NCBI RefSeq assembly: GCF_964275005.1 | Contig: NC_092704.1 | Coordinates: 34,798,416 to 34,862,415 of the forward strand | DNA from: Diadema setosum | Taxonomy: Eukaryota; Echinodermata; Echinoidea; Diadematoida; Diadematidae | Length of the DNA: 64,000 nucleotides | Direction of reading: 5' to 3' | Shown: in pieces, positions 2,052 to 29,971 of the stretch | How the letters are laid out: the number at the start of each line of letters is the position of its first letter | Numbering within the stretch: the first letter of the stretch is position 1 | The notes under the pieces: generated by a model | What the model saw: only the letters and a program-made list of their open reading frames with translations | The model's database searches: none | What the model was told of the DNA's origin: nothing | Translations under genes and position numbers: made by a program

Positions 2052-3653
2052 CTACCGAAGCATATGATGAGTGTTCAAGTGCTCTATATTTCAACATACC
2101 TATTTTTTCATCATGCAGTGACAAGCATTGCAAAATTTTGTTTACACTGTATATAAAGCTTTTTGAGAGAAAAATAATATGTTATTATGTACATAGTTTT
2201 AGACTGATACTGTACCCATCTCAATGTAAAGGAAGTGGACTGCGCATTTCTATTCCTTTTAGCAATTGTCAATTGCAAATGTTGTATATGTATATGTATA
2301 TGCAGAGAAGTGGTGACTTAATTTATATATTTGTAATTGTCCTTCATGAATAGTCCTCAGAATGTGTCAGATATTTTAATGAAACAAAGAAATGCATAGT
2401 GGACTTGATTTTTTTTTTCTAACATTTTTTTAGAGATATGTACATATTGTTGCAATCATTGTGATTGAAATGTATGTCGTTTATGAGATTTCTTAACTTC
2501 TACATGTCATTTCTGTTCATAGAACAGAAATCTCTTGTAGTCCAGGAGTCAGTTCAGTTGTTGTTTTTCAGTGTTGACTGGGTTTTTGTACAGTGTATGC
2601 TATCAGAATGTTACCATACAGAGCCTCAAGAATGACATATTTTTATGCCATTGTCTGGGGCGGTGAAAAGTGATACAGATTGATTACTGAATATCTGTTT
2701 CCCTCTGTTCTCCAGCAACTGTATTGTGGAAGGAACAAGACAGGTGTGATTGGGTGTATACCATGCATTTCTAGAATGTTGTACATTCATATATTTCCGT
2801 GGTGACATATGGTCAACATACATTTGTTTTGTTTTTCTCACACCTCGTCTTATGAAGACTTGACAGAAGTATATGCCCTGTAGTCAAGCACCACAGAATG
2901 ACCTCTGCAACTCTGGGCAAGGGGTTGTTTTGTATGTGATTGGAAAGAAGTTATGAATATTATTTGCCATTGTGTGACTGAAAGGGGTTTCATAAAAAGA
3001 TTGGATATGGTATCTGACTGGGCACCACAGATTTTCAGTGTGATATGCACAGAAATAGCCTTGACCAATTCACATGAGAATAATGTAAGAGTTGAAATAC
3101 AGTTATACCTGATCTAATACTCTGTATGATTTGATGTAAAAGGGGTACTAAGTGTAGCCGTGGTGATTGAAGAATTAAGATAAATATTTGATTCTTCAAA
3201 GAATCTGGACAAGCATATCAGGGTTGTATGGTTATGGCCAGTGTGTATGAATGCCTCCTTGTGAGGACCATGGCAGGAACACACACACAGTCTATGGGTG
3301 TCCTCAGTCTGTATGAAGCAAATCAAATGTCATGTAGAAAAGGTTTGGGGAGGGGTGATACTGATATTGCTGCATCAAGCAGATGTAAAGAAATTGGGTC
3401 CATGGCTGCCTAGAATATTCCTATGCTGTAGGGTCCTCGGTAAGATGGTATAGAAATTCACACAAAGTGGAAAGGTTCACATTGGAAGGCCTTCACAAGA
3501 TTTGTTGAGCGTTTGTGTGTGTGTGTGTGCATGTGTGTGTGCTTGCTTGTATGAAACAAGACGTATACAAATGTGTTGAAACTAAGGAATTTCATTACTA
3601 TATGTTTTGTCATATGCCTTAAGTTGTTGTAGGAATTTGTAAACCCACTTTAA

Positions 3654-4420
3654 CCCTATTCTAACTGGGGGGGGGTCAAATTGACCCCCCCCTCGACGTT
3701 TCGCGCCATGATTCCGCAACGCGCAAAGATTTTGCCGCGTCGTTTCGTGACTTTTTTCATTCGAGTCTCCCGCATATTTTGAGACCAAATTTGCGACGTC
3801 CGGGTACACCGTTCTGAAGTTATGCAATGTTTTGCATATGCATGTCAACCCGAAAAACGCTCGAATTCATGATTTCGTGTGCAAATCCAATGCAAACTGT
3901 GTTTTTTTGTTTAATTGATATAAATTAGATTATTTCAACTTTTAACCATTGAAATAAATCAATTCTAATGTAGATAAGCTTGAAAAAGTGCCTCCAACAA
4001 ATTTTGGCAAAAAAACAATAGAAAACAAAAGATCGAAAAAACAATAAAATACATAAGAAATTAACAAAACAATAAAAAACAAAAGAAAATGATTTTGATT
4101 GCGCTATTTTTTTACTAGAAAATTGTTTGATGTGTCTTGAGGAACTCTGACACAAAAATTCAATAATCCTTCAGTCTTTTTGATGGAGTTATAGGTGAAA
4201 ATATGATTTCATGCGTTCATTTGCATAATTAATTTATCAAAAAATATGAAATCAAAATTTTTCTATTGTATGACCATGTAATCTTGTAGTTGACATCCGG
4301 CTCTATGTTCAGGCAAAATTTTGCGGCGATCGCGCGATCGGCGGCCGAGATCTGAAGGGGGGGTCAAATTGACCCCCCCCCAGTAAAAACTTGGTCTCAA
4401 ATAGCCCAGTTAGAATAGGG
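3654..4420. mobile_element. piggyBac-like MITE, 767 bp, TTAA target duplications
   Basis: The element begins CCCTATTCTAACTGGG and ends with the exact reverse complement CCCAGTTAGAATAGGG. TTAA lies directly outside both ends (3650-3653 and 4421-4424). TTAA duplication with CCC-starting ends is the hallmark of the piggyBac superfamily. A second inverted feature sits just inside each end: GGGTCAAATTGACCC within longer G and C runs, near 3666-3692 and 4356-4381. The interior has CpG-rich flanks around an AT-rich core and no transposase frame, so it is non-autonomous. Short open frames inside it (for example 3582-3848 minus) have no recognisable product. Confidence 0.85.
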
Positions 4421-4507: not shown

Positions 4508-4818
4508 CTCATTGTGAGTGTCCCTTTAAGGGCTAAAGCTCATTGTGAGCATCCCTTTAAGGGCCACAGCTCATTGTGAGTGTCCCTTTAAAGGCTACAG
4601 CTCATTGTGAGCATCCCTTTAAAGGGCTACAGCTCACTGTGAGTGTCCCTTTAAGGGCTACAGCTCACTGTGAGTGTCCCTTTAAGGGCTACAGCTCACT
4701 GTGAATGTCCCTTTAAGGGCTACAGCTCATTGTGAGCATCCCTTTAAGGGCTACAGCTCACTGTGAGTGTCCCTTTAAGGGCTACAGCTCACTGTGAGTG
4801 TCTCTTTAAGGGCTACAG
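4508..4818. repeat. 31-bp minisatellite, about 10 copies
   Basis: Ten head-to-tail units of 31 bp (one of 32) with consensus parts CTCATTGTGAG, TGTCCCTTTAAGGG and CTACAG. Each unit contains the palindrome CCCTTTAAGGG. Two subtypes alternate (GTGAGTGTCCC and GTGAGCATCCC), which suggests higher-order duplication. A GA-rich run lies immediately upstream (about 4440-4480). Confidence 0.9.
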
Positions 4819-7552
4819 CTCTGTGTAACCTGTCCTCCAGTGTCCAAGACAGATGTATAAATGATGCAAGCACACATTACAAGTCCAAACTTGCACCTGC
4901 ACACCATACTGAATCATATATTGTCTATAAAATCTAATTTGTCTTTCATAAGTTTAGGTTTGCCACACTATTAGTTTTTATACACACCAGTCAGATTTAT
5001 TGAAAAACCTCCTGAGTCCCGAGGTAGAATAACAACCATACATAAGTATTACTTTCTATGTATTCACAGTGTGCACAGGATAATAACAAGGGTTGGAAGA
5101 AGACAAAACTAACGATTTGGTAGGCTTTGCTTTTGTTTTTCCAGGTCCAGACTTGATGCTTAAAGTGCATCAAATACACTCACTGTATCATTAACATTTG
5201 TTCCTTCCGCCTACTATCTGATTTTGACATTTGATTTGTGATTGGTTTCTGTTTCTTTGTGCGAGTTGACCAGATGGATGATGTCAGTCTTGCTGGATTA
5301 CAGGTTTTAGGTCTAGACCAACATGTGTGTGGTACAGGTGTAGCAAAGACGGAAGCATGTTGTTATATATATGATTATGATATAGAACATTATTTGTAAA
5401 TTTAGAAATTATTTATCAATTACCTTATGAATGTATGCCATTGTAGAACCCAGCATATTATACATATGTATATCATTTGTATCATCATTTTTATGGTCGT
5501 CCACTTTCTTTTCACCTGGTTTTGTTTTGTTCTCAAGCAGACAGAGATTTTTATGTCCTAGCTTTGGTACACTGAGGAAGTTCAATGACTCTAATCCTCA
5601 CGATGTCCAGCTACAATGATTGTTGTGAGTGACTGACTGTACATGGTTGTACTCAATGGATATTGTAATAAAATGCAAAACAAATTGCTTTCTAGAAAAA
5701 AAAAATGAATAGACTCATGTATATAATTTGTGATTATATTATTATCTTCTTGTGTTGAGGTGCCAGTTTGTGAGTGTATGTGTGTGGGTATGTGTATGTT
5801 TGTAGTGGAGTGCCAGGCTGTGTTCTATGGGATAGATTTTTTTTCCCTCTTAAATATCTTGAATTGCAATTTCCCCGAGATTGTTGTACATGAAATTCTG
5901 ATGATACATTGTAAGTCCTAATCTCTAAGTCAACAAATCACCAACTCACTTACGTCAATGAGATTTGATGTTCAAAACCACAAAAATACAACACATACAT
6001 GCAAGTTGATTTCCTTGTGTACAAATTTTAAGTCAGGTGATACTACATGGTGTGAAAAAAATTAATGGACACAAAAAGAATACCCAGCAAAGTGTTTCAA
6101 TCTATGGCCAGATGCCAGTTAACTCCCTGCTAGGCTACACTTTGCATGTGAGTAAACTATGCATGTCTGCAATTACGTCGTCTGTGTGTCGACTGTGTGT
6201 GTGTGTGTGTGTGTGGTTGTGTGTGTGTGTGTTTGTGTGTGTGTGCGTGTGTGTGCGTGTGTGTGTGTGTCAAGGTCTTCAACATGAGCGTGTTCAGTTG
6301 TCCAAGTGTTAGTGACTGAGCAGAAGCCTTAAAGCTAAAATGGAGTTCTGGTAAAAATTCTGATATTAGGCAAAAAATGATGTTCTACACATGAGCCAGA
6401 CTGCTGTTTCCATTGTCTTAGCATTTGTGTCGCACATCTAAAGCTAGCTATTGGTTAAAGCGATACTAGTGCATATCCAGCTCAGGATATTAGGAAAGGG
6501 AGATACATTTTTGTAATGCAAATGTAATCAATCTTGCATGAAGGCCAAGAAATTCCTGCGTTCCTGCACTTTAACCACAAAAGTTGGGGCTGAATTTACC
6601 GTACAACCAGCCACATTTCCGGCAAGAAACTTTTGCGAATTGGAGGCAACAGCATTTTTTTGCGGTATGAAACTTTCTCAATGCACCACTGGCATTTAAT
6701 GCATTGTGTTGACAAACACTTTCATGCACGTTGAATCCTGGCTCCTCACAAAATTCACAAAAGTTTCATGCACGCAAAAACTTCTGGTTTCATAATACAG
6801 ACCTATCGTTTTATTCCAAAGCAACGTTTCTATCATAAAGCAAACCAAAAAGTTCACAGACTAAATCAACTCTTCAAATCAAAGAATTTAAAACATCAGT
6901 CAACAATTTGCATTCATCTTCTCACCACTACAAGTATGTAGATGTATGTGGTCATAAGTGACTGAAAATGATTTGAAAAAGGAAGATATCCATTTCTTCT
7001 TCTTTATGCAGTTTATTACAATTCAAGATATAAAAAGTATCATCACAGTGTCAAAGTGGGTTTGTATGTTTAATGAGAGGTAACATATTCTTAGGATTCT
7101 GGAAAATCCAAAAACACATGATTTTTATGCTTGAAAACAAGTGACATTTTTGATATGTTTTGCAAAAATACATGTACATGGAAGCCTCCTTAGAATGAGG
7201 TCATAAAACCCATGACAAAGTACTGTACCTTGTTACAACTGTTTATCAGGTCTTTGTTTATTAAAGTCATGGTATAAAATGAAGAGAGAAAAAAAAAGTA
7301 AGGACCTGCAAAATGACCATGTAGAACAGGGTTTCTTTTTTCTTTCTTTTTTTAATCAAACCTCTGCTGAGCAAGGTTGAACTGTACTCGATTACAGGTG
7401 ACAGAATTGCTGGGCAAGGTTTACTTCATGACCGTAGTCATTATGACTAGATATGAAACATTCACAAGTGTTCACTTGATGGGAATTCTAAACAAACGTG
7501 GATGAGAAAATAACTTGCCAATACCCAGAAAATGAGACAGAAATGTGTGATC
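4819..7552. other. Gene-free stretch with GT tract
   Basis: No supported gene. A (GT)n microsatellite occupies about 6193-6270. Positions about 6560-6790 are a degenerate repeat with TTTGCG/ATGAAA motifs resembling the TA-flanked element at 35347-35507. The remainder is AT-rich and unremarkable. Confidence 0.5.
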
Positions 7553-7705
7553 TCAGTGGAAGATCCAGGGGGGTGCACTGGGCGAGTGCCCCCTCTTTAT
7601 TCTTTGTTAAAACAAAAGAAATAAGAAGAAAAAAATGGAGTATACATGCGTGACCTTTAATTTTGTGAAGGCGCCTGCCCTTTACGGAATTCCTGGATCT
7701 GCTCA
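7553..7705. mobile_element. Degenerate GGATCC-ended MITE copy
   Basis: Starts with CAGTGGAAGATCCAGG and ends with GGAATTCCTGGATCTGC, enclosing a CCCCCTCTTTATT...TTGTTAAAACAAAAG core. It is the same family as the intact copy at 29803-29971 and the modules inside the 14.5-26 kb foldback element. The ends are eroded and I see no clear target duplication. Confidence 0.65.
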
Positions 7706-10018: not shown

Positions 10019-10948
10019 TCATGATTCAGTAGCTTTTCTGTTTTCAGTAGCACTCCGTTCCTTTTGTTTTTGATCAAAGAGCTCTTTCAGGATGTCCCTC
10101 TTCTGAATGTTTGTAGCTCCAGAAGAATACACAAGGCCTGGTGTTTCGTTGCCGTAGTATGTGTAGAGCTGTTCCCCTCGGCTCCCAAGAAGCTTCCTTA
10201 GCCCCCTGTTCCGCTGCAGAAGTTTCTCATAGAACTCCAGCCCTCCCATGACGTATGCATCACTCAGGTTTGCTAGCCGCTGGTTCACTCTCAGATCCAC
10301 CCTTTCATTGAGGCCTGCCATGCAGAAGCTGCAGGCAAAGTAGAAGCATGTTCCCACAGCGAGACCAGTGACATAGATGGGAACAAGTGGTGAGAGTATC
10401 TGGACAATAAATGTTGTTGCAAATCCTGCCACAGTGGCTACCGGTGCCAAGACGATGGAGTAGAAGGGGAGATTACTGTCACTCAGTGCGATCTGCTGGC
10501 CGATAGCAAACTTACGGGCCTCCTTTCCCATTTTAAGAGAGTCCCTAAGCCACAGTCCCTCCCTACTGTCAAGGTTTGCTTTGATGGGTCCAGAGAAGCG
10601 AATGTTGGACAAGTCTGGCTCACTCACCAAAGTGGCTGGAACACCAATATGGCATCCAGATGGGAACCATGGCAATCCAACTGACTTCGCTTCCCAGCGA
10701 CTGGTGACAAAGGCATTGTATTTTGCAGGGTCTATACCCAGGTCATCGCAGACCTCCAGAAATTCCCGGTTCTGTTCTTCTGTCAGCTTGCAGTAGTTGC
10801 CTGTCCGATATGCCTCGAACACTGGACGGTATAGGTAGTTTGGAAAGAGATGAGGTGCTGTCTTGATGCTGAATACAATGCCAGCACTAGTGGCAGCAAC
10901 GATGCCAAAATTCAGAGGCTTCCGCAAAAATCTTGTCAACCTCGACAT
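10019..10948 (-). CDS. TMEM177: Transmembrane protein 177 (TMEM177)
   Basis: Complete 309-residue protein, close to the 311 residues of human TMEM177. The C-terminal third carries the family signature: GGLEFYEKLL (235-244), LRKLLG (250-255) and GEQLYTYYGNETPG (258-271). The middle has GLPWFPSGCHIGVPATL (91-107) and a KEARKFAIGQQIAL stretch (142-155). Hydrophobic segments lie at about 14-28, 162-185 and 188-212. TMEM177 is known as a mitochondrial inner-membrane protein that associates with COX20 and helps newly made COX2 mature; that role is family knowledge. The start was set at the ATG ending at 10948: the open frame continues upstream only through an intron-like, pyrimidine-rich stretch preceded by a splice acceptor, and the residues after this Met match the family N-terminus. 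The coding region is one uninterrupted exon. Confidence 0.93.
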   Translation of the reverse strand: MSRLTRFLRKPLNFGIVAATSAGIVFSIKTAPHLFPNYLYRPVFEAYRTGNYCKLTEEQNREFLEVCDDLGIDPAKYNAFVTSRWEAKSVGLPWFPSGCHIGVPATLVSEPDLSNIRFSGPIKANLDSREGLWLRDSLKMGKEARKFAIGQQIALSDSNLPFYSIVLAPVATVAGFATTFIVQILSPLVPIYVTGLAVGTCFYFACSFCMAGLNERVDLRVNQRLANLSDAYVMGGLEFYEKLLQRNRGLRKLLGSRGEQLYTYYGNETPGLVYSSGATNIQKRDILKELFDQKQKERSATENRKATES

Positions 10949-11689: not shown

Positions 11690-11848
11690 GGAAGGAAAAA
11701 TGTTCTCGTCACCAAATTTCAAAAATTCATACCTTTCAACTGATTATCCAATTTCCCTCAAACTTTCACTGATGACTGCTATCTACAGTACTAATATTGC
11801 TTAATTCACTCAATCCACATATGTATATTTGGAGTTAATTCCCCTTAA
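11690..11848. mobile_element. Right half of MITE family B
   Basis: Carries the family B right-end order: AAAATTCATA, CAATTT, CAAACTTTCACTGATG, ACTAATATTGCT, CACTCAATCCACAT, ending CCCCTTAA. The left half is missing. It abuts the next MITE at a shared TTAA. Confidence 0.65.
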
Positions 11849-13662: not shown

Positions 13663-14011
13663 ACTTACCTAAATTGATGGTTATATGCAGCATGTGTGAA
13701 CGGTTCACAAACGGTACATCGTCTTTCACGCCAGGCCATTTCCAATATTCGGGAGGTCACATGATCTGAATGCCCTTTCAAAAGGTCGCGCTGTCGACCG
13801 TGCTGCTACACCAACACTCAAGCGGCGCATCGCACGCACGCAAAAGATTTCCGCAGAGATCAAGGCGCCATTTTGAATTCTGCAACGATGAACCGCGACG
13901 GTGTCAGGGAATCCGCCAGAAAGTATCATTTTTTGGTTCCACGGACTTATCACGAGGGCTCTCAATGGACTTACGAACCTTCTGTAATACATGCATGCAC
14001 TTAAGGTGAGT
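13663..14011. other. Candidate first-exon splice donors, both strands
   Basis: Minus strand: TTTAG|GTAAGT with the exon ending at 13669. Plus strand: TTAAG|GTGAGT with the exon ending at 14005. A further plus-strand AAG|GTAAGC lies at 13227|13228. The strong donors on opposite strands in one CpG-rich patch suggest divergent non-coding first exons, but no transcript evidence is available here. Confidence 0.35.
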
Positions 14012-14515
14012 AACGTTTGGTAACGTGTACATTGTTTATAAAGAACGTATAAATTTTCATAAGTTTTGTAGTTGTGTTGTGGTTCCCCACTGTGAAGGTG
14101 CCCGCTCGCTGGTCAGACACTGTATTCGCGTAGCGTATTAACAGCGTCTGGTCGGGCTAGGGCGGAACCTATCTGTGGCGCTCAATCCAAATTTTCGAAC
14201 CAGTTTCTGCCTCGTTGAAACGCCAAAAAACATGGCTCAGAAAAACGCTATTTTTTGGTCTTTCCTTTGATCATTTTGCTTCAAAATTTCGACAGATGAT
14301 AGAAGACATGTTAGACTCCAATAATATATAAAAATCAGAAAATCGTATGTTTTGACCAATTTCAATGCTCTGACTTCAAACTCGATTTTCACGGCTTCGA
14401 CCGTGCGCGACTTTAGGACCTTTTTGTTGTAGCGGGTCACATACAGTCGCAGGCCAGCACCCAGTCGGGCTTGTTTACGGTTTTTGCTGGCGAGCCGCTG
14501 CCGTGCTCGCTTCTA

Positions 14516-14526
14516 CGTGCGGGACG
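14516..14526. repeat. Left 11-bp target site duplication
   Basis: CGTGCGGGACG directly precedes the first base of the foldback element's left terminus. The same 11 bp follows the right terminus at 26037-26047. Confidence 0.8.
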
Positions 14527-14872
14527 CGTATTTTTTATTTACACGCAAGCCTGTGGCTTTTCGCAATCTAATTCAATGAAACCGCTCGTGATGCGTCTAT
14601 GCTTACTCCACTCGGGTTGTTGGTTGCGAAGAGCACTGAACCCTCCGCTTGCGATTCGTACACGTTCATCAGTGAGTGTGTGTACGCGCTGTGAAAGTTT
14701 TGCTCGCCGTGGTAGACCTGCATCCAAGTAGTACATGTACGTATGTAAACGAGTGAGAGTGCGAAAAAGAAAACAACACAAAACAAAAAATCTGACCAGG
14801 AGGAGAGGGGGAGAGAGAGAGAATCATAAGGAAAGAGATAAAAAAAGCAATGAATATTCTGTGATATCTCAT

Positions 14873-15838
14873 CTTCTTCTTCTTCTTCTTCTGGTTAAGT
14901 CTGCCTCCTTCAATAGCCTGAAGATTCTTGCAGACTGGTGCTATTTACACTATAATACAATTTATTTACAGATATTTACAAGCACATAGAAAATTTGACG
15001 AAAACAACTAGCCACAGTGATCAACCGTTAGACGGTTTCGAAATGATCCCACAGATGGCGCAGAAACAATGTCTGACGACAGGGAATTCCAGATCCTTAC
15101 AGTTCTTGGGAAGAACGAATGGCGATGCGATTCAGTTCTCGAATATGGTACCTGATAGGAGTGTGGTTGCGAGGCTCTCGTTAACTGAGTAGCCTGTTTG
15201 ATGATATAGTCCTGTGCTGAAAGAGGAGTAAGATTATTGTGTATTTTGTACATCATAATTAGCCTGTCATTTTCTCTGCGCTGTTCCAGAGTGGTCCAAT
15301 CAAGCTCTTGTAGCATTTTGGTGACACTTGAGGTGTTATGGTAGCGATTTAAAGTGAATCGCGCAGCTCTTCTCTGGACCATTTCCACTTGGTGGATTAG
15401 GTTCTTGGTGAATGGGTCCCAAATTGTAGAAGCATACTCAACAATTGGTCGAACCAACGTTTTGTAAGCTGTGGCTTTAACATCAGAAGATTTTATGCGA
15501 AGATTGCGTTTTAGAAATGCAAGCACGTTATTGGCTTTATTGACAGTATTATTGATGTGTTGGGTCCACTTCAAATCAGAAGTAATGGTTACACCTAAGT
15601 ACTTCACGGATTCAACAGATTCAAGAGGGGCGTTATTTAGATGATACACGTGTTGCACCTTACTTCTTTTCCTGGATATTGTCAAAACCTTGCACTTATC
15701 TGTGTTCAAATCCATCATCCATTTTTTCGCCCAGTCACCAATTTTGTTTAGGTCCTCTTGAAGATTTTGCGTATGATGTTGATTGTCGATGGTCATGTAA
15801 GAAATTGCATCATCGGCAAAAAGGCGAACCTTTGAAAA
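14873..15838 (-). mobile_element. 5'-truncated LINE (jockey/CR1/L2-like RT fragment)
   Basis: On the minus strand the frame from about 15838 to the stop at 15008 encodes about 277 residues of reverse transcriptase from the catalytic FADD box (15809-15820) to the end of the ORF. Landmarks are DWAKKWMMDLNTDKCKVL, VKYLGVTITSDLKWTQHIN, VRPIVEYASTIWDPF and WNSLSSDIVSAPSVGSFRNR. The frame has no internal stop. Its 3' end is an (AAG)n tail (14873-14892 on plus), and everything 5' of FADD is missing. It replaced about 35 bp of the host arm, judged against the uninterrupted arm near 20942-20990. Confidence 0.85.
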
Positions 15839-15926
15839 ATGAAAAATGAGGGTACATTCCATGGAAGACAAATATTATTGGTGTATGATGCATGATGGGG
15901 GTGTATATAATGGGCTACACTGACCG

Positions 15927-15930
<4 letters not shown>

Positions 15931-16010
<80 letters not shown>
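15931..16010. repeat. (AT)n microsatellite
   Basis: About 40 AT dinucleotides. It expands the short TATATA in the equivalent place of the inner arm. It produces a meaningless Tyr-Ile open frame. Confidence 0.95.
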
Positions 16011-16013
<3 letters not shown>

Positions 16014-16124
16014 TTTATATTCATATATATATATACAGGTTGGAGTGATTTTTAAAGGGATGGTAGGGGCGCTGAGCATACTCCCAAAGAATTACATTTA
16101 GATGGTCATTTTTCGCCTTTGTAA

Positions 16125-16245
16125 ATTGTAGGCCTACACGTTTGCGTTTACTGATATGTGGGGGGGGGGGAGACTGAAGGTGGAGCCAATCCTACCCCCC
16201 CCCCCCGATATTGAAACGCATAACGACACAATAGGCCTACACATG
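16125..16245. repeat. Small hairpin with G-run/C-run stem
   Basis: GTAGGCCTACAC...TGCGTTT...ATAT then a G run pairs with a C run followed by ATATTGAAACGCATAACG and AGGCCTACAC. An imperfect MITE-like hairpin present only in L1. Confidence 0.5.
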
Positions 16246-17936
16246 ACGAGTAATCTAACAGAATGTAAGTATATAATGTAACACTTTTCCATCTCCGTTG
16301 ATTGATAATTTAGATATTGACAGGAAAGATTGAAGGGAAAAGGAGTGGAGAAGAAGAGCATGGATGGAAAGCTTGAAGGGTGAGTAGTTGAAAGTTATGC
16401 AATAGGCTACAGCTGGTACATATGCATGTACATGTATCAGAGAGTTGTGAAATAACATGATCGCTTAAATCTAATGACACCTGAATGGAACAAACATCAT
16501 ATATACATTGGAAAATGTTTGCCTTTTTTCTCATTTTAAAATTAATACATTGTATCAAAAGTACTGTATTTGTCTTTCAGACCCCCTCACTCTCTTCTTT
16601 CCAAAACGTCTCTCATTTCCCGTCTCTCCATACATCATAGTATTTGTTCCAAATACAAGCTCTCTCTATCTCTCTTGACTCCCTCTCATATCACATGATT
16701 TCTGTTTCTAAGACCCCCTCTATATATACATTGTATGTACATGTATTAACTTTATTTCTCAGACCCCAACCCCCTGTTATATCTGTTGCTATTAAAGGCC
16801 CCCAAATCTATCTTCTTACTGATGGTATATTATTTTGTTTCTCAAACCTGTCCCTCTTTTCTTCATACTAGTTTCAAAGACTCACTCTGCATATTCATTT
16901 TCCGACCTCTCTCGGACCCTCTCCTTTTTCAAATGCATGACTCGTGTATTCCTTCCTCGATCACTGCTTGAATTAGCCTATATATATATAATATCATACA
17001 ATTTATTTGTTTTTCATACTCTCTCTGTCTCTCCCATTCTCTCTTTCTGATTCTTAAACTTTACAATGTTTGTTTAGAAGACCACTTATTACTCTCTACA
17101 TTGATCAGTTTGTCTAGAAACATGTACAGTCACATGTTATCTAGGAAAATTACACCACTGTTGCATGAAGTCATTATGCACTTTATTCACTTCTTTATGT
17201 TCAAGCACTTTTTTTCATGAAGGTATACTACAGATGTAATCGGATCCTCCAATATCCAAGAAGTATTGTGTTACAAACTAGAACTATCACTCAATGTGAT
17301 TAATATCCCCAAAACTAAACACTGAGGCAGTTAGCTCAACAGGCAATGATCACTTTGTATATATGCTTTTCTTAAAAAGAAATACTATGACAATGTATTG
17401 TTCAACATTGAATAAAATTAACAATAATGTGTTACTATATATGCTCACTGATAGTCACATGTTCCATATCTCAAGTCAAGTGCTCAAAACTTGAGTGAGT
17501 AAAGTCAGTAAATCAGCAATTTCTATGATTTTCATTAAGAATACTGTTACCATGTCAACACAATGTTTGACATTAAGAAAAAATGAAGTTTGCACAACTA
17601 TATGTCATAGCTGTCACATGTGCCAAATTTCAAGTCAAATGCTAAAAATCCGAGGGAGTTAGGTGAATTCACAATATCATTGCATAAGATTTTCATCCAA
17701 AATATGCTGTCACCATGTGTAGAGCCCACTAATGTCAACAATAATCGACCAGTAGAGTCCAACCACTTATGTGACTGCCGTATCTTCAAGCTATATGCTT
17801 ACTTGACGACAGTCTTCTGCATTTATACACTCCGTTAATTCAGTCAGTGATTTTCTTTATTCCGAGTGGTTCCCTATCGACGCGTTCTCTCATACTCTTT
17901 TCTTTAATCTGTCGATACACGTATATCTCAATTTTA

Positions 17937-19508
17937 TATTCATTTCATTTCATTTTCATTTCATTTCATTCATTTCATTCCTTCTTTCTTTTTCGTCAAA
18001 CATAACACGAAATGAATCAGAAGATATAACATAGGCATGTATTCGACTTTACATGGTAGATAATGGTTAACAAATAGGAAATTATACATGCATACCGGCA
18101 GAATACAAAGTTATGTTTGGAGGGGAAAAAAAGAAAGAACTGAGAGGTTCACTGAAAAGCATGCTTGTGTGAACCACTCAAAGGATTCTTGTGAATACAT
18201 TAAACTTTTTTTCTTTTTTTTTTTACAAAGACAGGAGAGAACAAGACAGGACAATAGACAAGACAATAGAAACACAACGACATTACATGACTTTACAGTA
18301 GGGTATACCATGACAGTAATAAAACACAAAAGAATAATGGAAAGGAAGGAGAGAAAGAAAAAGGAAATGAAAGGAAAAGCCAACACGCTAAACATCGGGA
18401 TCGTAAGAGGGAATTGAGGTGTTTCAGCTCAGTCAGCCGAGCAAAGTGTATACAAATAAGATAATGTAAAAAATACACAATGATGAAATCAATGATTGAC
18501 GATGAACCCTTAGGCTGTAAAGACCAGCTAAGTAATGAATCGTATATATCTTAATATGAGTTCAACAAAAAATATTTTAACTTACGCTGAAACGAATTCA
18601 AAGATAAAGAATTTTTTATATCACAACTTTTTTTTTTTTTTATATCACAATTCTAAAATCTAGGGCCAGTGTATATAAATGTATTTTGAGCCAATAATGT
18701 TCTCAGAAGGGGTAAATGAAACTCATTTGATCGCCTGGTGGGATAATTATGAAAATATTGATTTCGGGGAAACATTGAATCAAAAATGCTGGAAAGTGCA
18801 TTTGTGTTATAATTAAACGTAAACTGACCCAGCTGTAAGAAAAACAAATCTTTGATTTTTTAAATCTTATATCTAACAAATAATGGATCTGCATGGGAAC
18901 GTGGAGAAACGCCACAAATAATACGAAGTGCCTTTTTTTTTGTAATAACAATAATCTATCTAATAAAGTTTGATGGGCACTATACCCCATGCTAAGATTC
19001 CATAATTTAAATAAGGTAATATTAATGAAAAATACAACGTCAGCAAAGAAGACAACGGGATATGAGATTTAAGTCTATTAATAATACCAATATTACGCGA
19101 AATTATTTTAATAATTTTAATAATATGAGGCTTCCACGAAAGTTTATCGTCCACTGTAATACCGAGAAACTTTATATGAGATACACGCTCTAAGTGAACG
19201 TCATCAAAGATGATATGTGGGTAAAACTTCTATAGACTTACTGAATAATATATAGTTAGTTTTCTGAAGATTCAGTAATAATTTGTTGGCTCTTATCCAT
19301 TGAGTCACTTTTTTTTTAATTCGGAATTAACAGTAGAGTGATTGGATTTTGGTGGGAGAAGAAAATATTTGAATCATCGGCAAAAGGTATAAAAGAAAGT
19401 ATGTCGGATGATCTACAAAAATCAATTTCTGTAATATGATGAAAAGTAAAGGTCTTAATATACCCTGAGGGACGCCACATTTAATAACTTCAAGACTAGA
19501 TTCGGATG
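17937..19508 (-). pseudogene. Degenerate 5'-truncated LINE
   Basis: Minus-strand reverse transcriptase remains in broken frames: KCGVPQG (about 19462-19482), FADDS (about 19370-19384), MDDKLSWKPHI...SRNIGIINRL...LILPYLNYGILAWG (18960-19154) and HNYPTRRSNEFHLPLLRT (within 18653-18847). The order and spacing match a jockey-like RT, but frameshifts and stops separate the blocks. The 3' end is a run of GAAAT/TTTCA repeats (17934-17980). Flanking arm sequence resumes at about 19509, so it inserted cleanly within L1. Confidence 0.8.
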
Positions 19509-19810
19509 TACACACTGCATGTTTCATTCTCTTGTAAACAAAAAGAAATGACTGTATTTCATTTTTGTAATATCATGATCGATGCAGAAAATTCTTAATA
19601 AATTCATTTGAATCTGGATCGTGTAATGTCATAACAACCACTATAATATCATCATAACACGTCGACGACAAATGTCATAATGGCCATAACAATAATGTCA
19701 TAACACGTCGACGACAAAATTTAAAATCGAATTAATCACAAAATGTCATAACTCGTCGACCACAAATGTCAAATTTTTCAAATTTACTGCAAATGTCATA
19801 ACGCGTCATA
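19509..19810 (+). repeat. Outer left arm (L1), inner portion with tandem units
   Basis: Continues the arm (GAAATGACTGTATTTCATTT, GATCGATGCAGAAAATTC) and then a few copies of the ATGTCATAACACGTCGACGA unit, matching 22130-22300 in the inner arm. Confidence 0.75.
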
Positions 19811-19972
19811 GGGGAGGATCCAGGAATTCCGTAAAGGCGGCGTGCCGCCTTTACAAAATCAAAGACTGGCGTGAACCCCCCCCCCCTTTTCTTCTTTTTA
19901 TTTCTGTTGTTTTAACAAATATAGAGAGGGGGCACAAGAGAGGGAAGCGCCCCCTCTCGATCCGCGATTGCG
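19811..19972. mobile_element. GGATCC-ended module
   Basis: GGGGAGGATCCAGGAATTCC at the left, then a C run and a TTGTTTTAACAAA core, ending CCCCCTCTCGATCCGCGA. The same junction from tandem units into this module recurs near 20450 and 23220, so it behaves as part of the foldback element. Confidence 0.65.
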
Positions 19973-20361
19973 TTAAAGGGATTGTATAGTTTTGGTTGAG
20001 ACCTAATTTCAGGTTTCTAACATTATTTGGTGAGATAATGAGAAACCTTTTATGAAATATGAATGAGGAAGTAATTCAATGAGGAATTCAATGTTTATTC
20101 GATGAAAATTGGTTTTGAAATGGCTGAGATATCCAAAACAGAGCGATTCTAATAAGTGTGGGACCCACACTTTATTACGATCGCTTTGTTTTACTTTGTT
20201 TTTGGATGTTTCAGTCATTCCAAACCCGATTTTCATCAAATAAACTTTGAATTCCTCTTAAAGTGGTATACTCTGTACTATTTCATAAGTGTTTTCTTGG
20301 TATCTTGTAAAAAGTTAAAAGCCCAATTCTCATCTCCACCAATACTGTACCATCCCTTTAA
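19973..20361. mobile_element. MITE family A copy
   Basis: TTAAAGGGATTGTATAGT at the left and the inverted GTACCATCCCTTTAA at the right. Long arms flank a central palindrome GTGTGGGACCCACAC. Sister copies lie at 47813-48202 and 60148-60548. Non-coding; the open frame at 20156-20569 is spurious. Confidence 0.8.
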
Positions 20362-20629
20362 CCACAAATGTCAAAATCGGATTAACCACAAATGTCATAA
20401 CACCTCGATCAGAAATATCAAAATTTCCAAATTTACTGTCATAACGTATCACAGGGGAAGATCCTGCAGGAATTCCATAAAGGGGAGGCGCCTTATACAA
20501 AATCAAAAGCTGGCGCAACCAGCTTCATTTTATTTCATTTTATTTCTTTTTGTTATAACAAAAATATAAGAGACGCGCCGCCCCTCTACAAAAGTACAAG
20601 CTGGCGCACCCCCCCCCCCCCCCCCCCCG
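20362..20629. repeat. Foldback tandem units, GGATCC module and C run
   Basis: A few ATGTCATAACAC-type units, then a module with GAAGATCC and GGAATTCC ends, ending in a run of over 20 C bases where the inner left arm begins. Confidence 0.6.
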
Positions 20630-22244
20630 CTCGGGTTCGTTGCGAAGAGTTGTGTGAGTGCCTCTGCTCGCGACGATTCGATTCGTACACGTTCATCAGT
20701 GAGTATGTGCCACTGATCTCCCCTCTAAGAGGGGAGATCAGTGGCGTGTGCACGGGCTGTGGAAGTTTTACCTGCCGTGGTAGACTCTCATCGAATTATT
20801 ATTGTGTAAATTAATAAGTATGTAAACGAGTGCGAAAAACAAAACAATGCAAAACAAACAATCTGACAAGGAGGAGAGGGGGAGAGAGAGAATCATATTT
20901 ACAGGAAAGAGATAAAAAAGCAATGAATATTCTGTGATATCTCATCAGTCATGCGCAACAGTGATCAATGTTATTGCGGGTTCCATATGGAAGACCGGAT
21001 GCACAACTGTATTGGTGTAGGCTACCTATATAAAATGATGGGGATGTATTTATTTCTCAGCCCCCAACCCCCTCTGTTATATTTGTTGCTATTAAAGGCC
21101 CCTAAATTTATCTTCAGACTGATGGTATATTATTTTGTTTCTCAAACCTGCCCCTCTTTTCTTCATACTAGTTTCAAAGACTCACTGTGCATATGCATTT
21201 TCCGACCTCTCTCGACCCCTTCCCTTTTCAAATGCATGACTCATGTATTTCTTCCCTTCCTCGATCACTGCTTGAATTATCATACAATTTATTTGTTTCT
21301 TACGACTTTCTCTGCCTCTCCCCTCCTCTCTTTCTCATTTCAAAACTTCACAATGTTTGTTAACAAGACTACTTTCTATACATTGATCAGTTTGTCTAGA
21401 AACACTGTACAGTCACGTGCAAATTAGTATGAAGGAAAATTACACCACTATTGCATGAATTCATTATCACTTTATTCACTTCTTTTTGTTCAAACACTTT
21501 TTTTTTCATGAAGGTTTATACAGAGATAACCTGATCCTCCAATATCCAAGAAGTATTGTAATACAAACTAGAACTATCACTCAATGTGATTTATATACCC
21601 CCTACTAACAAAGTAACTGACATTTGCCATATCTCATGTTAAGTGCTCAAAACCTGAGTGAGTACAGTAAATAAATCAACAATTTCTATGATTTTCATTA
21701 GAAATACTGTTACCATAGCAACACAATGTTTGACATTAAGAAAAAAATGAAGTTTGCCCAGCTATATCATAACTGTCACATGTGCCAAACCTCAAGTCAA
21801 ATGCTCAACACTGAGGGAATAGGGGAATTCACGATGTCATTGTATGATTTTCATTCAAAATAAAATTATGCTGTCACCATATTGTGTCGAGCCCACTAAT
21901 GTCAATAATATTCGACCGCTAATGTGGCTGTCGTATCTTTTAACATTTACACTCCCAATACAATGTGCCATAATTCAGTCAGATCATTTGATTTTCTTTA
22001 TTCCGAGTGGTTCCCAATCGACGTGGTCTCTTACTCTTTTCTTTAAAGGGACTGTACAGTACTGGCTGAGGTGGGGATTCATGTTTTGATTAATCTGTAT
22101 ACACGCAATCTCAGTTTTATATTCGAAAAGACACACTGTATGTTCCTTTCTCTTGCAAAACAAAAAGAAATGACTGTATTTCATTTTTGTAACATATTAT
22201 GATCGATGCAGAAAATTCCGGATAAATTCATTTGAATTTGGATC
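20630..22244 (+). repeat. Inner left arm (L2) of foldback element
   Basis: Near-exact reverse complement of 24373-25960. Inspected stretches differ at only a few percent of positions plus small indels: 19 bp near 21035 is absent from the right arm, and an approximately 45-bp fragment of MITE family A (about 22044-22088) is unique to L2. It begins at GCTCGGGTTCGTTGCGAAG, so the outermost 110 bp or so of the arm is missing. Near 20708-20745 it holds the hairpin CCACTGATCTCCCC, shared with the right arm but not with L1. Confidence 0.8.
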
Positions 22245-23225
22245 GTGTAATGTCATAACAACCACTAATGTCATAAGACGACGACAAATGTCATAACGAC
22301 CACTAATGCCATGACACGTCAACGACAAATGTCACAATGACCACTTTCATGTCATAACACGTCGGCGACAAATCTCATGATGACCACTAATGTCATAACA
22401 CGTCGACGACAAAATGTCATAGCGACCAATAATGTCATAACGTCGACGACAAATGTCAAAATTTCCATTTTTGCTGCAAATGTCATAAGACGTCGACGAC
22501 AATAATGTCATAACCATAATCTCATAACACGTCGACGACAAATGTCATAATGACCACTAATGTCATAACACGTCGACGAGAAATGTCATAACGACCAATA
22601 ACGTCGACAACAAATGTCGAAATTTTCCATGTCCATTTTTACTGCAAATGTCATAACACGTCGACGACAAATTCATAGCGACCACTAATGTCATAACATG
22701 TCGACGACAAATATCAAAATCGGATTAACCACAAATGTCATAACACGTCGACGGCAAATGTCAAAATTTCCGATCAGTTTTTACTGCAAATATTATGTCG
22801 ACGACAAATGTCATAACGACCTCTAATGTCATAACACGTCGACGACAAATTTCATAATGACCGATAATGTCATAAGACGTCGACTACAAATGTCATAACC
22901 ACTAATCTCATAACACGTCGACGACAAAATAAATGTGAAAATTTCTTTTTTTTTTTTACTGTAAATGTCATAACACGTCAATGACAAATGCCATAACGAC
23001 CACTAATGTCATAACACGTTGACGACAGATTTCATAATGACCAATAATGTCATAAGACGTCGACGACAGATGTCATGACCACTAATCTCATAACACGTCG
23101 ACGACATAATGTCAAAATTTTTGTTTTTACTGCAAATGTCATAACACGTCAATGACATAATGTTAAAATCGAATTAACCACAAATTTCATAACGCGTCAA
23201 CCACAAATGTCATAGGACCTAATGC
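22245..23225 (+). repeat. Tandem array of ACGTCGACGACAA units, left side
   Basis: About 22 imperfect units averaging about 42 bp, each with ATGTCATAACACGTCGACGA and usually a second half reading AAATGTCATAATGACCAC. Each contains the palindromic ACGTCGACGT-like core. Unit spacing is irregular and spacers are not unique, so this is a satellite-like array and not a CRISPR. Confidence 0.85.
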
Positions 23226-23768
23226 ATCACAGGGGAGGATCCAGGAATTCTGTAAAGGGGAGACACCTTAACAAAATCAAAGGTTGATGCAACCTCCTCC
23301 CTTTTTGATTTGTATTTCTTTTATTTTAACAAAAATACAGACGGGGAGGGGCGCCGCGCCCCCTCTAGATCCGCGACTGCTTCAGCCACAGGTTAATGGT
23401 AAAACTCGACTTTTCAAAACTACAAGCTGGCGCAACCCCCTATTTTTTCTTTTTATTTCTGTTGTTTTAACAAAAACAGAAATGGGCATCAGAGGGAGAT
23501 GCACCCGTCTCGATCCGCTACTGCGTCATCCACAAATGTCAAAACTCATTGCTTGCATTTCATGGGCGGATCAAGGAATTCCGTAAAGGGGAGACACCTT
23601 TTCAAAATGAAAGGCTGGCGCAACTCCACCCCCCTAATTATGTTCTTCTTATCTAATTTGTTTAAACGAAAAAAAAAAAAAGAAAAATGGAGGGGTGCGG
23701 CAGTCTTTACTTTTATAAAGGCGCCCCCCCCCCCTTTACGGAATTCCGTGATCCGCCCCTGTGACGCA
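23226..23768. repeat. Centre of foldback element, GGATCC modules
   Basis: Begins CACAGGGGAGGATCCAGG and ends GATCCGCCCCTGTG in inverted orientation, so the arm symmetry extends into the centre. Contains two or three degenerate GGATCC modules with the TTGTTTTAACAAA core. No open frame resembles a transposase. Confidence 0.6.
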
Positions 23769-24190
23769 TTCTGAAATTTGTGATAAATTTGGAAAATTTG
23801 ACATTCATGGTCGACGCGTTATGAAATTTGTGGTTAGTTCGATTTTAACATTTGTCATCGACGTGTTATAACATTTGTGGATAATCAGACTTTGATATTT
23901 GTCCGATGTTACGACTTTTGTCGTCGACGTGTTATGACATTAGTAGTTGTTATGAAATGTGTCGTCAACGTGATGACATTTGCAGTAAAAATGGAAATTT
24001 TGATATTTGTCGTTGACGTGTTATGACATTTGTGGTTAATCCGATTTTGACATTTGTCGTCGACGTGTTAATCCGATCTTGACATTTATCGTAGACGTGT
24101 CATGACATTACAGTGGTCATTATGACATTGTCGTCGACGTGTCATGACATTAGTGGTTGTTATGACATTTGTCGTCGTCATCTTATGACA
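23769..24190 (-). repeat. Tandem array of ACGTCGACGACAA units, right side
   Basis: About nine inverted units (TTTGTCGTCGACGTGTTATG type). The same array as on the left but with fewer copies. Confidence 0.8.
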
Positions 24191-24193
24191 TTA

Positions 24194-24369
24194 GGGAGCT
24201 TTAGATTTTAGACGCGCGGACGTTCAAAGGGGAAAAAAAAAAACATGTTCTGAGCGTGCGCAGAAGCGTACGTCAAGTTGACGTGCGCTTTTGCGCACGC
24301 TCAGACCATGTTTTTCTTTTTTTTTTTTCCCCTTTGAACGTCCGCGCGTCTAAAATCTAAAGCTTCCTG
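24194..24369. mobile_element. Hairpin MITE, TTA target duplication (PIF/Harbinger-like)
   Basis: Near-perfect 176-bp palindrome: GGGAGCTTTAGATTTTAGAC and GCGCGGACGTTC at the left, inverted at the right, meeting at CGTACGTCAAGTTGACGTGC. It splits one tandem unit: neighbouring units read GACATTAGTGGTTG, while here GACATTA precedes and TTAGTGGTTG follows. That gives a direct empty-site comparison and a TTA duplication. The 3-bp TTA fits PIF/Harbinger. Confidence 0.75.
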
Positions 24370-26036
24370 TTAGTGGTTGTTATGACATTACACGATCCAA
24401 ATTCAAATGAATTTATCCGGAATTTTCTGCATCGATCATATGTTACAAAAATAAAATACAGTCATTTCTTTTTTGCTTTGCAAGAGAATGGAACATACAG
24501 TGTGTACATTCGAATATAAAACTGAGATTACGTGTACAGATTAAAGAAAAAAGTAAGAGAAAACGTCGATTGGGAACCACTCGGAATAAAGACAATCAAA
24601 TGATCTGACTGAATTATGGCACATTGTATTGGGAGTGTAAATGCTTAAAGATACGACAGCCACATTAGTGGTCGAATATTATTGACATTAGTGGGCTCGA
24701 CACAATATGGTGACAGCATAATTTTATTTTGAATGAAAATCATAATACAATGACATCATGAATTCACTTAACTCCCTCAGTTTTGAGCATTTGACTTGAG
24801 ATTTGGCACATCGCGGTGACAGTTATGATATTTAGCTGCGCAAACTTTATATTTTCTTAATGTCAAACATTGTGTTGCTATGGTAACAGTATTTCTAATG
24901 AAAATCATAGAAATTGTTGATTTATTTACTGTACTCACTCAGGTTTTGAGCACTTGACGTGAGATATGGCAAATGTCAGTTACTTTGTTAGTAGGGGGTA
25001 TAAATCACATTGAGTGATAGTTCTAGTTTGTATTATACAATATTCTTGGATATTGGAGGATCAGGTTATCTCTGTATAAACCTTCATGAAAAAAAGTGTT
25101 TGAACAAAAAGAAGTGAGTAAAGTGATAATTAATTCATGCAATAGTGGTGTAATTTTCCTTCATACTAATACTATACACTGTACACGTGACTGTACAGTG
25201 TTTCTAGACAAACTGATCAATGTAGAAAGTAGAAAGTAGTCTTGTTAACAAACATTGTAAAGTTTTGAAATGAGAAAGAGAGGAGGGGAGAGGCAGAGAA
25301 AGTAGTAAGAAACAAATAAATTGTATGATAATTCAAGCAGTGATCGAGGAAGGGAAGAAATACACGAGTCATGCATTTGAAAAAGGAAGGGGTCGAGAGA
25401 GGTCGGAAAATGCATATGCACAGTGAGTCTTTGAAACTAGTATGAAGAAAAGAGGGGCAGGTTTGAGAAACAAAATAATATACCAACAGTCTGAAGATAA
25501 ATTTAGGGGCCTTTAATAGCAACAAATATAACAGAGGGGGTTGGGGGCTGAGAAATAAATACATCGTAGCCTACACCAATACAGTTGTGCATCCGGTCTT
25601 CCATATGGAACCCGCAATAACATTGATCGCTGTTGCGCATGACTGATGAGATATCACAGAATATTCATTGCTTTTTTATCTCTTTCCTGTAAATATGATT
25701 CTCTCTCTCCCCCTCTCCTCCTTGTCAGATTGTTTGTTTTGCATTGTTTTGTTTTTCGCACTCGTTTACATACTTATTAATTTACACAATAATAATTCGA
25801 TGAGAGTCTACCACGGCAGGTAAAACTTCCACAGCCCGTGCACACACCACTGATCTCAGGGGAGATCAGTGGCACATACTCACTGATGAACGTGTACGAA
25901 TCGAATCGTCGCGAGCAGAGGCACTCACACAACTCTTCGCAACGAACCCGAGCGGAGTAAGCATAGACGTATTACTAGCGGTTTCATTGAATTTAATTGC
26001 GAAAAGCCACAGGCTTGCGTGTAAATAAAAAATACG
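24370..26036 (-). repeat. Right arm of foldback element
   Basis: Reverse complement of L2 and, over the final 110 bp or so (25955-26036), of L1 only. The minus-strand frame at 25217-25564 translates the same low-complexity peptide as 21048-21400. It ends at ...AAAAAATACG. Confidence 0.8.
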
Positions 26037-26047
26037 CGTGCGGGACG
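26037..26047. repeat. Right 11-bp target site duplication
   Basis: CGTGCGGGACG, identical to 14516-14526. Joining the outer flanks gives a continuous GC-rich locus, consistent with a single pre-insertion site. Confidence 0.8.
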
Positions 26048-26659
26048 CTGGACCGACCGACCGGGACTGGGGTGCGATGGGCGTTGTGCACGTGCAACCT
26101 ATGTACGCGTGTAGATCGACTACCGACTTGTTTTGTGCTAAACATGTTGAGATGGTCTAACAAGAAACACTCGCCTACTCTCAGATTTTAATAGCTCATC
26201 TGGTCTAAGCAAAGTGAATGAGGCCGTGAATGAAACTAATTAAGAATCATGAGCATATACTTACTGAAATTCGTGTTTCTTCAATCTAAAGTTGCAGTGT
26301 GTCGTGTGTTACTTTTTGATAGTCGTCCTCACGTAACAGTCACCTAATGGAGGCTGACATATTGTATTTTTGATTACCTCATTGTACAGGAGTTCGTTTC
26401 AATATAGTGATAGTGGTTACTTACTAGCGTAGCACCATGGACCTACCATGCTAGCACTTACTAGGCTAGCGCGCTGCGATGTGCGTGGTTAGCAATGGAA
26501 CGCGGAAAGGACAGCCTTGAGTTGAAGCTAGCTGCGCATACCTGCTCATTTTGAAGCGTATGATGGCGCTGCATGACATTTACGGCAATGTCTGAAGTAG
26601 AAATCTACAGTATATAGTATTCCATCCATAATTTAAAAAAAAAAAAAAGTCAAAGTTTC
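26048..26659. other. Gene-free stretch, CpG-rich at left
   Basis: The first 100 bp or so is GC-rich and probably once adjoined the CpG-rich DNA left of 14516. Near 26420-26470 there is a cluster of CTAGC/GCTAGC motifs. No exon recognised. Confidence 0.45.
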
Positions 26660-27053
26660 CACCGGCTGGTAAAGGTGAGGATTCACCTTTTAACTTTTTG
26701 CTAGATACTTGGAAATCAATTGACGGAATGTCAAGGAGCATGTGATTCTAGGAGGAATTCAAAGTTCATTTGATGAAAATCTGTACTGAAATGGTCGAGA
26801 TATCCCAAATCAATGTAAAACAAAACGATCTTATTATAGTAGGTGGGTCCCATACCTTTTATTACTCTACAGGATCCCTTTGCTTTGGATATCTCTGCAA
26901 TTTCAAAATCAATATTTTCATCAAAATAAACTTTGAATTCCTCTTAGAATTACACGCTCTTTCAAATATTGTAAGAGATTTCTCATTATCTCACACAAAA
27001 AGAGGTGGAAACCTGAAGCCCCATCTCACCCAAAACTATACCATCCCTTTTTA
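26660..27053. mobile_element. MITE family A, eroded copy
   Basis: Contains the family landmarks: AGGAATTCAAAGTT, TTGATGAAAAT, GAGATATCC, GGTGGGTCCCA, AACTATACCATCCC. The left end is degraded and no clean TTAA remains. Confidence 0.65.
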
Positions 27054-29802: not shown

Positions 29803-29971
29803 CAGGGGCGGATCCAGGAATTCCGTAAAGAGGGGGCGTGTTTACAAAATTAAAGGGGGGGGGGCGCACGCACCCCTCCCTCCATGTTTTTCTTTTTATT
29901 TCTTTTGTTTCAACAAAAAATAAAGGGGGGGGGGCGTGCGCCGGTTGCGGTCCTCCCTGGATCCGCCCCTG
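29803..29971. mobile_element. GGATCC-ended MITE, intact, 6-bp duplication GTATAG
   Basis: Starts CAGGGGCGGATCCAGG and ends inverted CCTGGATCCGCCCCTG. GTATAG lies directly outside both ends (29797-29802, 29972-29977). The core is GTTTCAACAAA flanked by G runs. 169 bp, non-coding. CAG...CTG ends suggest a hAT-related family, although the usual hAT duplication is 8 bp. Confidence 0.85.

What the first reader, a model, noticed from the sequence alone, without database searches (positions are those of the whole stretch)
14516..26047. Giant 11.5 kb foldback element with 11-bp target duplication and no transposase
Both outer ends carry the same roughly 60-bp inverted terminus and are flanked by identical CGTGCGGGACG. 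Joined flanks form one GC-rich locus, as expected of a pre-insertion site. Long arms filled with tandem repeats recall foldback/TU elements; an 11-bp duplication recalls Mutator-like elements. The combination with a duplicated left arm is not one I recognise.
Basis: partly seen in the sequence, partly recalled or inferred. Interest (0 to 1): 0.9.

Follow-up and report, generated by a model that had tools for sequence, protein, structure and literature searches.

The report
Chimera of two sea-urchin foldback transposons
The 11.5 kb stretch is one inserted mobile DNA unit in which no transposase was found; its left half comes from one foldback transposon family and the rest is a nearly complete member of a second family, so this copy looks like the trace of a repair event that spliced two transposons together.

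Summary
(1) The element runs 14526-26037, its end is GCGTATTTTTTATTTACACGC, and its target duplication is 9 bp (GTGCGGGAC), not 11: at 30 sites (window included) the base before CGTATT is G in 30, but the partner C that 11 bp would need is there in 8; 10 of 15 other copies with both ends have a perfect 9-bp duplication, one has 11. (2) It is not one foldback element with a duplicated arm but a chimera: 14526-~20630 is the left half of a family A element, 20627-26037 an almost complete, inverted family B element lacking 82 bp of one end. They meet in a C-run with about 4 bp of microhomology; this junction was found once in the 913-Mb assembly. (3) Size is not unusual: 8 of 40 listed pairs are longer. 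Target sites share NNNCNGNNN. Six-frame scans of this copy, one A and one B copy show no transposase domain. A ~0.4 kb family shares the outer 19 bp. Best reading: non-autonomous, perhaps Mutator-like foldback families, spliced by ectopic break repair at an occupied site. The mobilising transposase was not found. Host: echinoid-like echinoderm.

The parts
14517..14525 (+). left copy of 9-bp target duplication GTGCGGGAC
   Evidence: length set
14526..14618 (+). left terminal inverted repeat, family A type (begins GCGTATTTTTTATTTACACGC)
14526..20630 (+). left half of a family A foldback element; last 4 bases overlap the B part as microhomology
14874..15843 (-). LINE fragment inserted in this copy; the LINE side of its junction is 98-100% identical at 39 other scored places, none of which carries the A side
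17942..19496 (-). about 1.55 kb belonging to family A, in the left arm only; in copy L044 it overlaps a weak reverse-transcriptase match (E 4.8e-6, under Pfam's cut-off)
19625..19808 (+). tandem repeats at inner end of A left arm
19973..20361 (.). palindromic MITE inserted at TTAA; the same place is uninterrupted in 10 of 15 A copies (5 not found by the exact string)
20609..20630 (.). A/B junction: run of 20 C followed by GC, shared CCGC microhomology
20627..26037 (-). near-complete family B foldback element, lacking the outer 82 bp of its left (window orientation) terminus
20627..22268 (+).
   Evidence: 1517 of 1559 aligned positions identical to the right arm
22249..23214 (+). tandem repeats of B, left side (AATGTCATAACACGTCGACGACA-like units)
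23763..24194 (-). tandem repeats of B, right side, inverted
24370..26037 (-). B right arm with intact terminus
26038..26046 (+). right copy of 9-bp target duplication GTGCGGGAC

Best explanation
A single-locus chimera of two non-autonomous foldback transposon families (A and B) that share their termini and so, presumably, one transposase supplied in trans. SHOWN: one inserted unit with a perfect 9-bp duplication; left half from family A; the rest an almost complete family B element without the outer 82 bp of one end; about 4 bp of microhomology at the junction; the junction found at no other scored place in the assembly. INFERRED: a B element first inserted at a CNG-centred GC-rich site; a break arose in or near its left terminus (excision attempt or stalled fork); the flank-side end, carrying the terminus that A and B share, invaded an A element elsewhere and copied its left half to the central C-run; synthesis stopped and the new end was joined by microhomology to the broken B end. 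This leaves both target duplications intact and explains why only the outermost part of B is missing. The mirror image (A first, right half replaced by copying B) is not excluded. The transposase is most likely Mutator-like, but was not identified.
For: Families and ends: 30 A-type termini, the window's included, at 30 different sites; 15 of 20 fetched 10-kb stretches hold both ends. B copy L051 aligns along its length to window 26037-20627; 21 bins of 250 bases from 20810 on are 0.968-0.996 identical without gaps. In the 20 A stretches the only match to a B arm over 88% and over 150 bases is one of 151 bases. 9-bp duplications: A 10 of 15 perfect, B 6 of 10 perfect. Junction: of 42 matches only the window's own locus covers the 200-base query; the other 41 (two of them inside the window's own element) match one side only. 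Microhomology read. PMC8277862 (abstract and passages) reports gap filling as the main source of single-copy animal Pack-TIRs, with microhomology (median 2 bp) at one breakpoint or more in 190 (67.6%).
Against: No donor A copy was identified: the window's LINE insertion is at no other scored A place (40 of 989 candidates scored), so the donor lacked it, is lost, or was not scored. The terminus holds no mosaic trace that would prove strand invasion: the outermost ~41 bases of A and B ends are identical, and further in the left end is A-type except one base. Uniqueness does not separate in-situ formation from one later transposition. Of 15 A copies, two are near misses and three lack a convincing duplication; of 10 B copies one has none and three are imperfect. 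Only one B copy was read in full; the other nine pairs rest on termini and spacing. No autonomous partner was found.
Confidence: 0.68

Rival explanations
1. The chimera formed elsewhere (template switch between an A and a B element) and then transposed to this site as one unit, using the A left end and the B right end; the source copy is lost or not in the assembly.
For: Both ends are intact and compatible, and the 9-bp duplication is perfect. FoSTeST in PMC8277862 is a published model of this kind (passages).
Against: The junction was found at one place. It needs one more step and a lost donor. In that paper the transposed chimeras are the multicopy ones.
Confidence: 0.26
2. One giant foldback element whose left arm was duplicated in place.
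For: Three arms related to each other in one unit.
Against: The outer left arm is the left arm of family A, and the inner left arm plus right arm are the two arms of a separate 5.4 kb family B that stands alone elsewhere with its own duplications.
Confidence: 0.02
3. Assembly error joining an A copy to a B copy at the C-run.
For: The junction lies in a 20-base C-run inside repeats and was found once.
Against: A misjoin of two loci would rarely give the same 9-mer on both outer flanks (about 5e-4; two B copies that do share a 9-mer have similar flanks, whereas the window's flanks are single-copy). No reads were available to test it.
Confidence: 0.04
4. The transposase that moves A and B is not Mutator-like but of the P superfamily or another kind (a question separate from how the chimera formed).
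For: P-type RNaseH-like transposase domains are also in the assembly (52 matches). Galileo is a foldback-like P element (PMC3573991, passages). The palindromic CCGG-like target resembles what I recall of P-element targets. Two C-type elements show imperfect repeats that fit 8 bp better than 9.
Against: A and B duplications are 9 bp; Galileo has 7 bp (PMC3573991) and P 8 bp (recalled). The nearest of the 52 hits to any of 167 listed termini is 101 kb away.
Confidence: 0.25

Closest known systems
Tm1 Mutator/Foldback family, root-knot nematodes (PMC3169594, abstract and passages)
   Same: Foldback-like composite arms with tandem repeats, mostly 9-bp duplications (8-10 bp in 45 of 53), many non-autonomous copies
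   Different: Tm1 is small (0.9 and 2.3 kb amplicons), no target consensus was seen, and a transposase copy is known. Here listed pairs are 5-16 kb, the target is NNNCNGNNN, and no transposase copy was found
Tetris and DAIBAM of Drosophila virilis (PMC4079207, abstract and passages)
   Same: Non-autonomous foldback with arms up to 1.7 kb and tandem repeats, 8-10 bp duplications, and a small MITE sharing only the outer ends
   Different: No sequence relation was tested; the passages seen describe rearranged forms but no two-family chimera within one duplication
Galileo chimeric copies, D. mojavensis (PMC3573991, passages)
   Same: Copies whose two ends belong to different subfamilies, attributed to ectopic recombination or conversion
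   Different: The 12 Galileo chimeras have non-matching 7-bp flanks, whereas here the 9-bp flanks match exactly. Galileo is P superfamily
Pack-TIRs and FB4 of Drosophila (PMC8277862, abstract and passages)
   Same: Single-copy chimeras by gap filling with microhomology; FB4, with 9-10 bp duplications, assigned to MULE by its authors
   Different: There the captured piece is called non-TE sequence; here it is half of a second foldback family
TU elements of sea urchin (recalled; only a mention of sea-urchin foldbacks seen in PMC4079207)
   Same: Foldback elements in sea urchins
   Different: Recalled as having 15-bp outer repeats and 8-bp duplications; here 9 bp. No TU sequence could be compared

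Membership tests
Foldback elements (structural class) | Long inverted arms making up much of the element | tested here: met
   L051 arms align over 1717 columns at 93.5% in a 5.4 kb element; in 15 A copies the best inverted alignment is 1335-1627 columns at 82.8-87.8%
Foldback elements (structural class) | Tandem repeats within the arms | tested here: met
   they lie at the inner ends of the arms
Mutator-like (MULE) superfamily | Target duplication of 8-11 bp (PMC6446971) | tested here: met
   perfect 9 bp in 10 of 15 A copies, 6 of 10 B copies and the window
Mutator-like (MULE) superfamily | MULE transposase in the element or in an autonomous element with the same ends | tested here: inconclusive
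   None in six frames of window, L044 or L051. 27 PF10551 hits, nearest to any of 167 listed termini 41 kb; 3 hits lie on contigs without a listed terminus, and 69 of the 169 exact-or-near termini were not listed there
P superfamily (Galileo-like) | 7-8 bp target duplication (8 bp recalled) | tested here: not met
   9 bp in A and B
P superfamily (Galileo-like) | P-type transposase in an element with the same ends | tested here: inconclusive
   52 PF21787 hits, nearest to a listed terminus 101 kb; 8 hits on contigs without a listed terminus
TU elements | Sequence match to TU arms | not testable with these tools
   no TU sequence held
TU elements | 8-bp duplication (recalled) | tested here: not met
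   9 bp

The most novel reading that the evidence does not exclude
Three internally different families (A, from about 7.2 kb, and B, about 5.4 kb, both foldback; C, about 0.4 kb) share the outer 19 bp and are moved by one transposase, perhaps of an uncatalogued kind, that cuts a 9-bp NNNCNGNNN target. Foldback ends serve as invasion points for ectopic repair, so an occupied site can be rebuilt into a new, still end-competent chimera without losing its duplication: a route by which new foldback families arise in place. (Against the part on C: two C elements fit 8-bp repeats better.)
Probability: 0.15. Interest if true: 0.6.

Novelty: new member of a known kind. Interest (0 to 1): 0.42.

Why it matters
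Foldback elements were early finds in sea urchins (recalled), yet what moves them and how their modular structure arises are still unclear. This locus gives a clean case: both parent families stand alone elsewhere with their own 9-bp duplications, the junction is precise and was found once, and the outer duplication is intact. That makes ectopic repair within an occupied site directly testable in other individuals. The families also show a sharply defined target (C and G around the centre in 29 and 30 of 30 sites), which would help recognise the transposase.

Tried and rejected
Tried and rejected: (a) 11-bp duplication - rejected. (b) In-place duplication of the left arm - rejected once B was found standing alone. 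(c) The 1.55 kb at 17942-19496 first looked to me like a window-specific LINE insertion; it belongs to family A. (d) Donor A copy via the LINE junction - none among the 40 of 989 candidates scored. (e) Empty allele - none in this assembly. (f) Autonomous partner by MULE and P domains and by ends with diverged subterminal sequence: not found; these searches did reveal the C-type ends. (g) hAT domain (PF05699) was asked once, unanswered, not repeated. (h) Paper searches: answered; others failed on time; 99 was repeated as 106, and 93 was not repeated in its own wording. In the answered ones I saw no description of this family; that is a statement about those listings and the passages named, nothing wider.
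Full report
Setting. The window lies in a 912.7-Mb assembly of 102 contigs. An open reading frame at 10019-10942 (minus strand) is a TMEM177-like protein, 67% identical to one of Lytechinus variegatus and 46-48% to two starfish proteins, so the host is most likely an echinoid-like echinoderm; no tool names the species.

The observation. The element runs from 14526 to 26037 (11,512 bp), flanked by GTGCGGGAC at 14517-14525 and 26038-26046. Both ends begin GCGTATTTTTTATTTACACGC, and 80 of the first 86 positions agree between the ends. In six frames of 14001-27000 the only Pfam match up to E 0.01 is a partial reverse transcriptase on the minus strand (E 1.5e-6, 28.5 bits against a cut-off of 29.6), over the LINE insert at 14874-15843.

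Nine, not eleven. The left terminus was searched in the assembly: 40 matches scored of 142 candidates, 30 of them fetched as loci, the first being the window's own. The 30 sites all differ. In all 30 the base before CGTATT is G, but the base that an 11-bp duplication would pair with it, at -11, is C in only 8. Of 20 stretches of 10 kb (window not among them), 15 contain both ends. With the terminus read as GCGTATT, 10 of 15 have a perfect 9-bp duplication, two are near misses (8 bp in L033, 8 of 9 in L041) and three are unconvincing (L039, L042, L049); read as CGTATT, one of 15 (L047) shows 11 bp. The window's 11 bp is therefore 9 bp plus two chance matches.

Target. Over the 30 sites the 9-mer has C at position 4 in 29, G at position 6 in 30 and G at position 7 in 24: NNNCNGNNN, a symmetric, GC-rich target. 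Its mean GC is 0.74 against 0.47 in the next 200 bases outward. Family B follows the same rule in 7 of 7 usable duplications (two of these are the same 9-mer, and the C10 one was read by eye).

Two families. Family A copies with both ends in the 10-kb stretch are 7.2-9.3 kb. Their best inverted alignment is 1335-1627 columns at 82.8-87.8%; no open frame over 172 codons was found in the 15, and six frames of one, L044, hold no transposase domain, only a weak reverse-transcriptase match (E 4.8e-6, under the cut-off) at about element positions 3621-4010. The window's left half matches A up to the central C-run; its 15844-19975 stretch is 97-98% identical without gaps to the 20 A stretches. A search with the right terminus (40 of 142 candidates scored) gave a second family B: matched by coordinate by hand, ten pairs, nine of 5.0-6.6 kb and one of 19.6 kb, plus two unpaired termini. 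Only one B copy, L051 on contig C4, was read in full; it aligns along its length to window 26037-20627 and shows that 82 bases of one end are missing. From 20810 on, 21 bins of 250 bases are 0.968-0.996 identical without gaps; the bin over the junction is lower, 0.820. Six frames of L051 hold no Pfam domain up to E 0.01. Of ten B pairs six have a perfect 9-bp duplication; C10 has the same 9-mer on both sides but lacks the first three bases of its left end; C9 and C3 are imperfect; C24 has none (partly read by eye).

The junction. A copies read ...GGCGCACCCC(T)CCCCCGCCCCC..., B reads ...TTACTCCGCTCGGG..., the window reads ...GGCGCA, a run of 20 C, GCTCGGG.... CCGC is common to all, about 4 bp of microhomology; the C-run makes the exact breakpoint uncertain. 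A 200-base query across the junction gave 42 matches (40 of 182 candidate places scored). The window's own place is the only full-length match; the other 41, two of them inside the window's own element, match only the A side or only the B side. In the 20 A stretches the only match to a B arm over 88% and over 150 bases is 151 bases at 88.7%.

How it probably happened. The perfect 9-bp duplication means that the whole behaved as one unit, or that the site was occupied by one parent and rebuilt between its duplications. A single copy, microhomology and the loss of only the outermost piece of B fit gap filling: a break in or near B's left end, invasion of an A element through the shared terminus, synthesis of half an A element, and microhomology joining. 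These steps are inferred. PMC8277862 (abstract and passages) reports gap filling for most single-copy chimeras of animal TIR elements and FoSTeST for multicopy ones. PMC3573991 (passages) reports 12 chimeric Galileo copies, but with non-matching flanks; the matching flanks here are the difference. I put in-situ formation at about 0.68, transposition of a ready-made chimera at about 0.26, an assembly error at 0.04.

What moves it. The 21-bp terminus occurs 169 times (up to 2 mismatches; reversed control 5). Of the 100 places listed, 80 form 40 convergent pairs (4,990-15,850 bp, median 7.7 kb), no divergent neighbours lie within 20 kb, and 8 of 40 pairs are longer than the window's; the longer ones may carry later inserts. 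A further family, C, shares only the outer 19 bp: 44 termini against 0 in the control, forming 16 pairs, 12 of them 391-474 bp, the others 829, 2,366, 2,929 and 13,624 bp. At the two C pairs checked the repeats are imperfect and fit 8 bp better than 9 (read by eye), which speaks against C being moved in just the same way. MULE domains (27 hits) and P-type domains (52 hits) exist in the assembly; to the 167 distinct termini listed the nearest MULE hit is 41 kb and the nearest P hit 101 kb away, with 3 and 8 hits on contigs without a listed terminus. Duplication length, long arms and published parallels (Tm1, PMC3169594; Tetris, PMC4079207; FB4, PMC8277862; MULE duplications of 8-11 bp, PMC6446971; abstracts or passages only) favour a Mutator-like transposase, but membership is not shown.

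After formation. A LINE at 14874-15843 and a TTAA MITE at 19973-20361 interrupt this copy. For the LINE, the 6 A copies printed (of 15) are uninterrupted; for the MITE, 10 of 15 show the uninterrupted TTAA place and 5 were not found by the exact string. The LINE junction was found only here, while its LINE side is 98-100% identical at 39 other scored places (40 of 989 candidates scored), so that insertion is probably recent. No allele with joined flanks is in the assembly; each flank matches only the window's own locus.

Noticed in passing
19973-20361, 26667-27050, 47813-48202, 60148-60548: Four copies of a palindromic MITE of about 390 bp, three with ends TTAAAGGG/CCCTTTAA; the first sits in the A half at a TTAA that is uninterrupted in 10 of 15 other A copies.
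   Followed up: partly
about 22045-22090: A 40-50 bp piece flanked by TTAA, by eye like the end of the MITE above, in the B left arm; absent from the right arm and not found by string in B copy L051.
   Followed up: partly
24193-24368: Hairpin-like insert (AGCTTTAGATTTTAGACGCGCGG...) flanked by TTA (by eye); its start is also in B copy L051 in the same context, so it is probably older than the chimera.
   Followed up: partly
G000 contigs, e.g. C10:23531268-23531697, C8:22558171-22561099, C6:2080225-2082590: C-type elements sharing only the outer 19 bp with A and B; 12 of 16 pairs are 391-474 bp, two of 2.4 and 2.9 kb could be larger relatives or carry inserts.
   Followed up: partly
G000 C1:38519732-38525860 and C43:12996-18580: Two B copies share the same target 9-mer CGCCCGGTG with similar flanks, perhaps insertions into the same dispersed repeat.
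   Followed up: no
7589-7702, 19810-19932, 23230-23353, 29803-29936: A dispersed GGATCCAGGAATTC-like repeat occurs both in the centres of the foldback elements and on its own in the window.
   Followed up: no
45491-46070: A 580-bp imperfect palindrome (83%) with partial copies near 11714, 30428 and 50785-51095.
   Followed up: no
4508-4821: Ten tandem copies of a 31-bp unit.
   Followed up: no
G000 C13:8206498(+), 8209007(+), 8216298(-) and C17:1549274(+), 1557645(-), 1567506(-): Termini in odd arrangements (two left ends before one right end, or one left end and two right ends), possible further rearranged copies.
   Followed up: no
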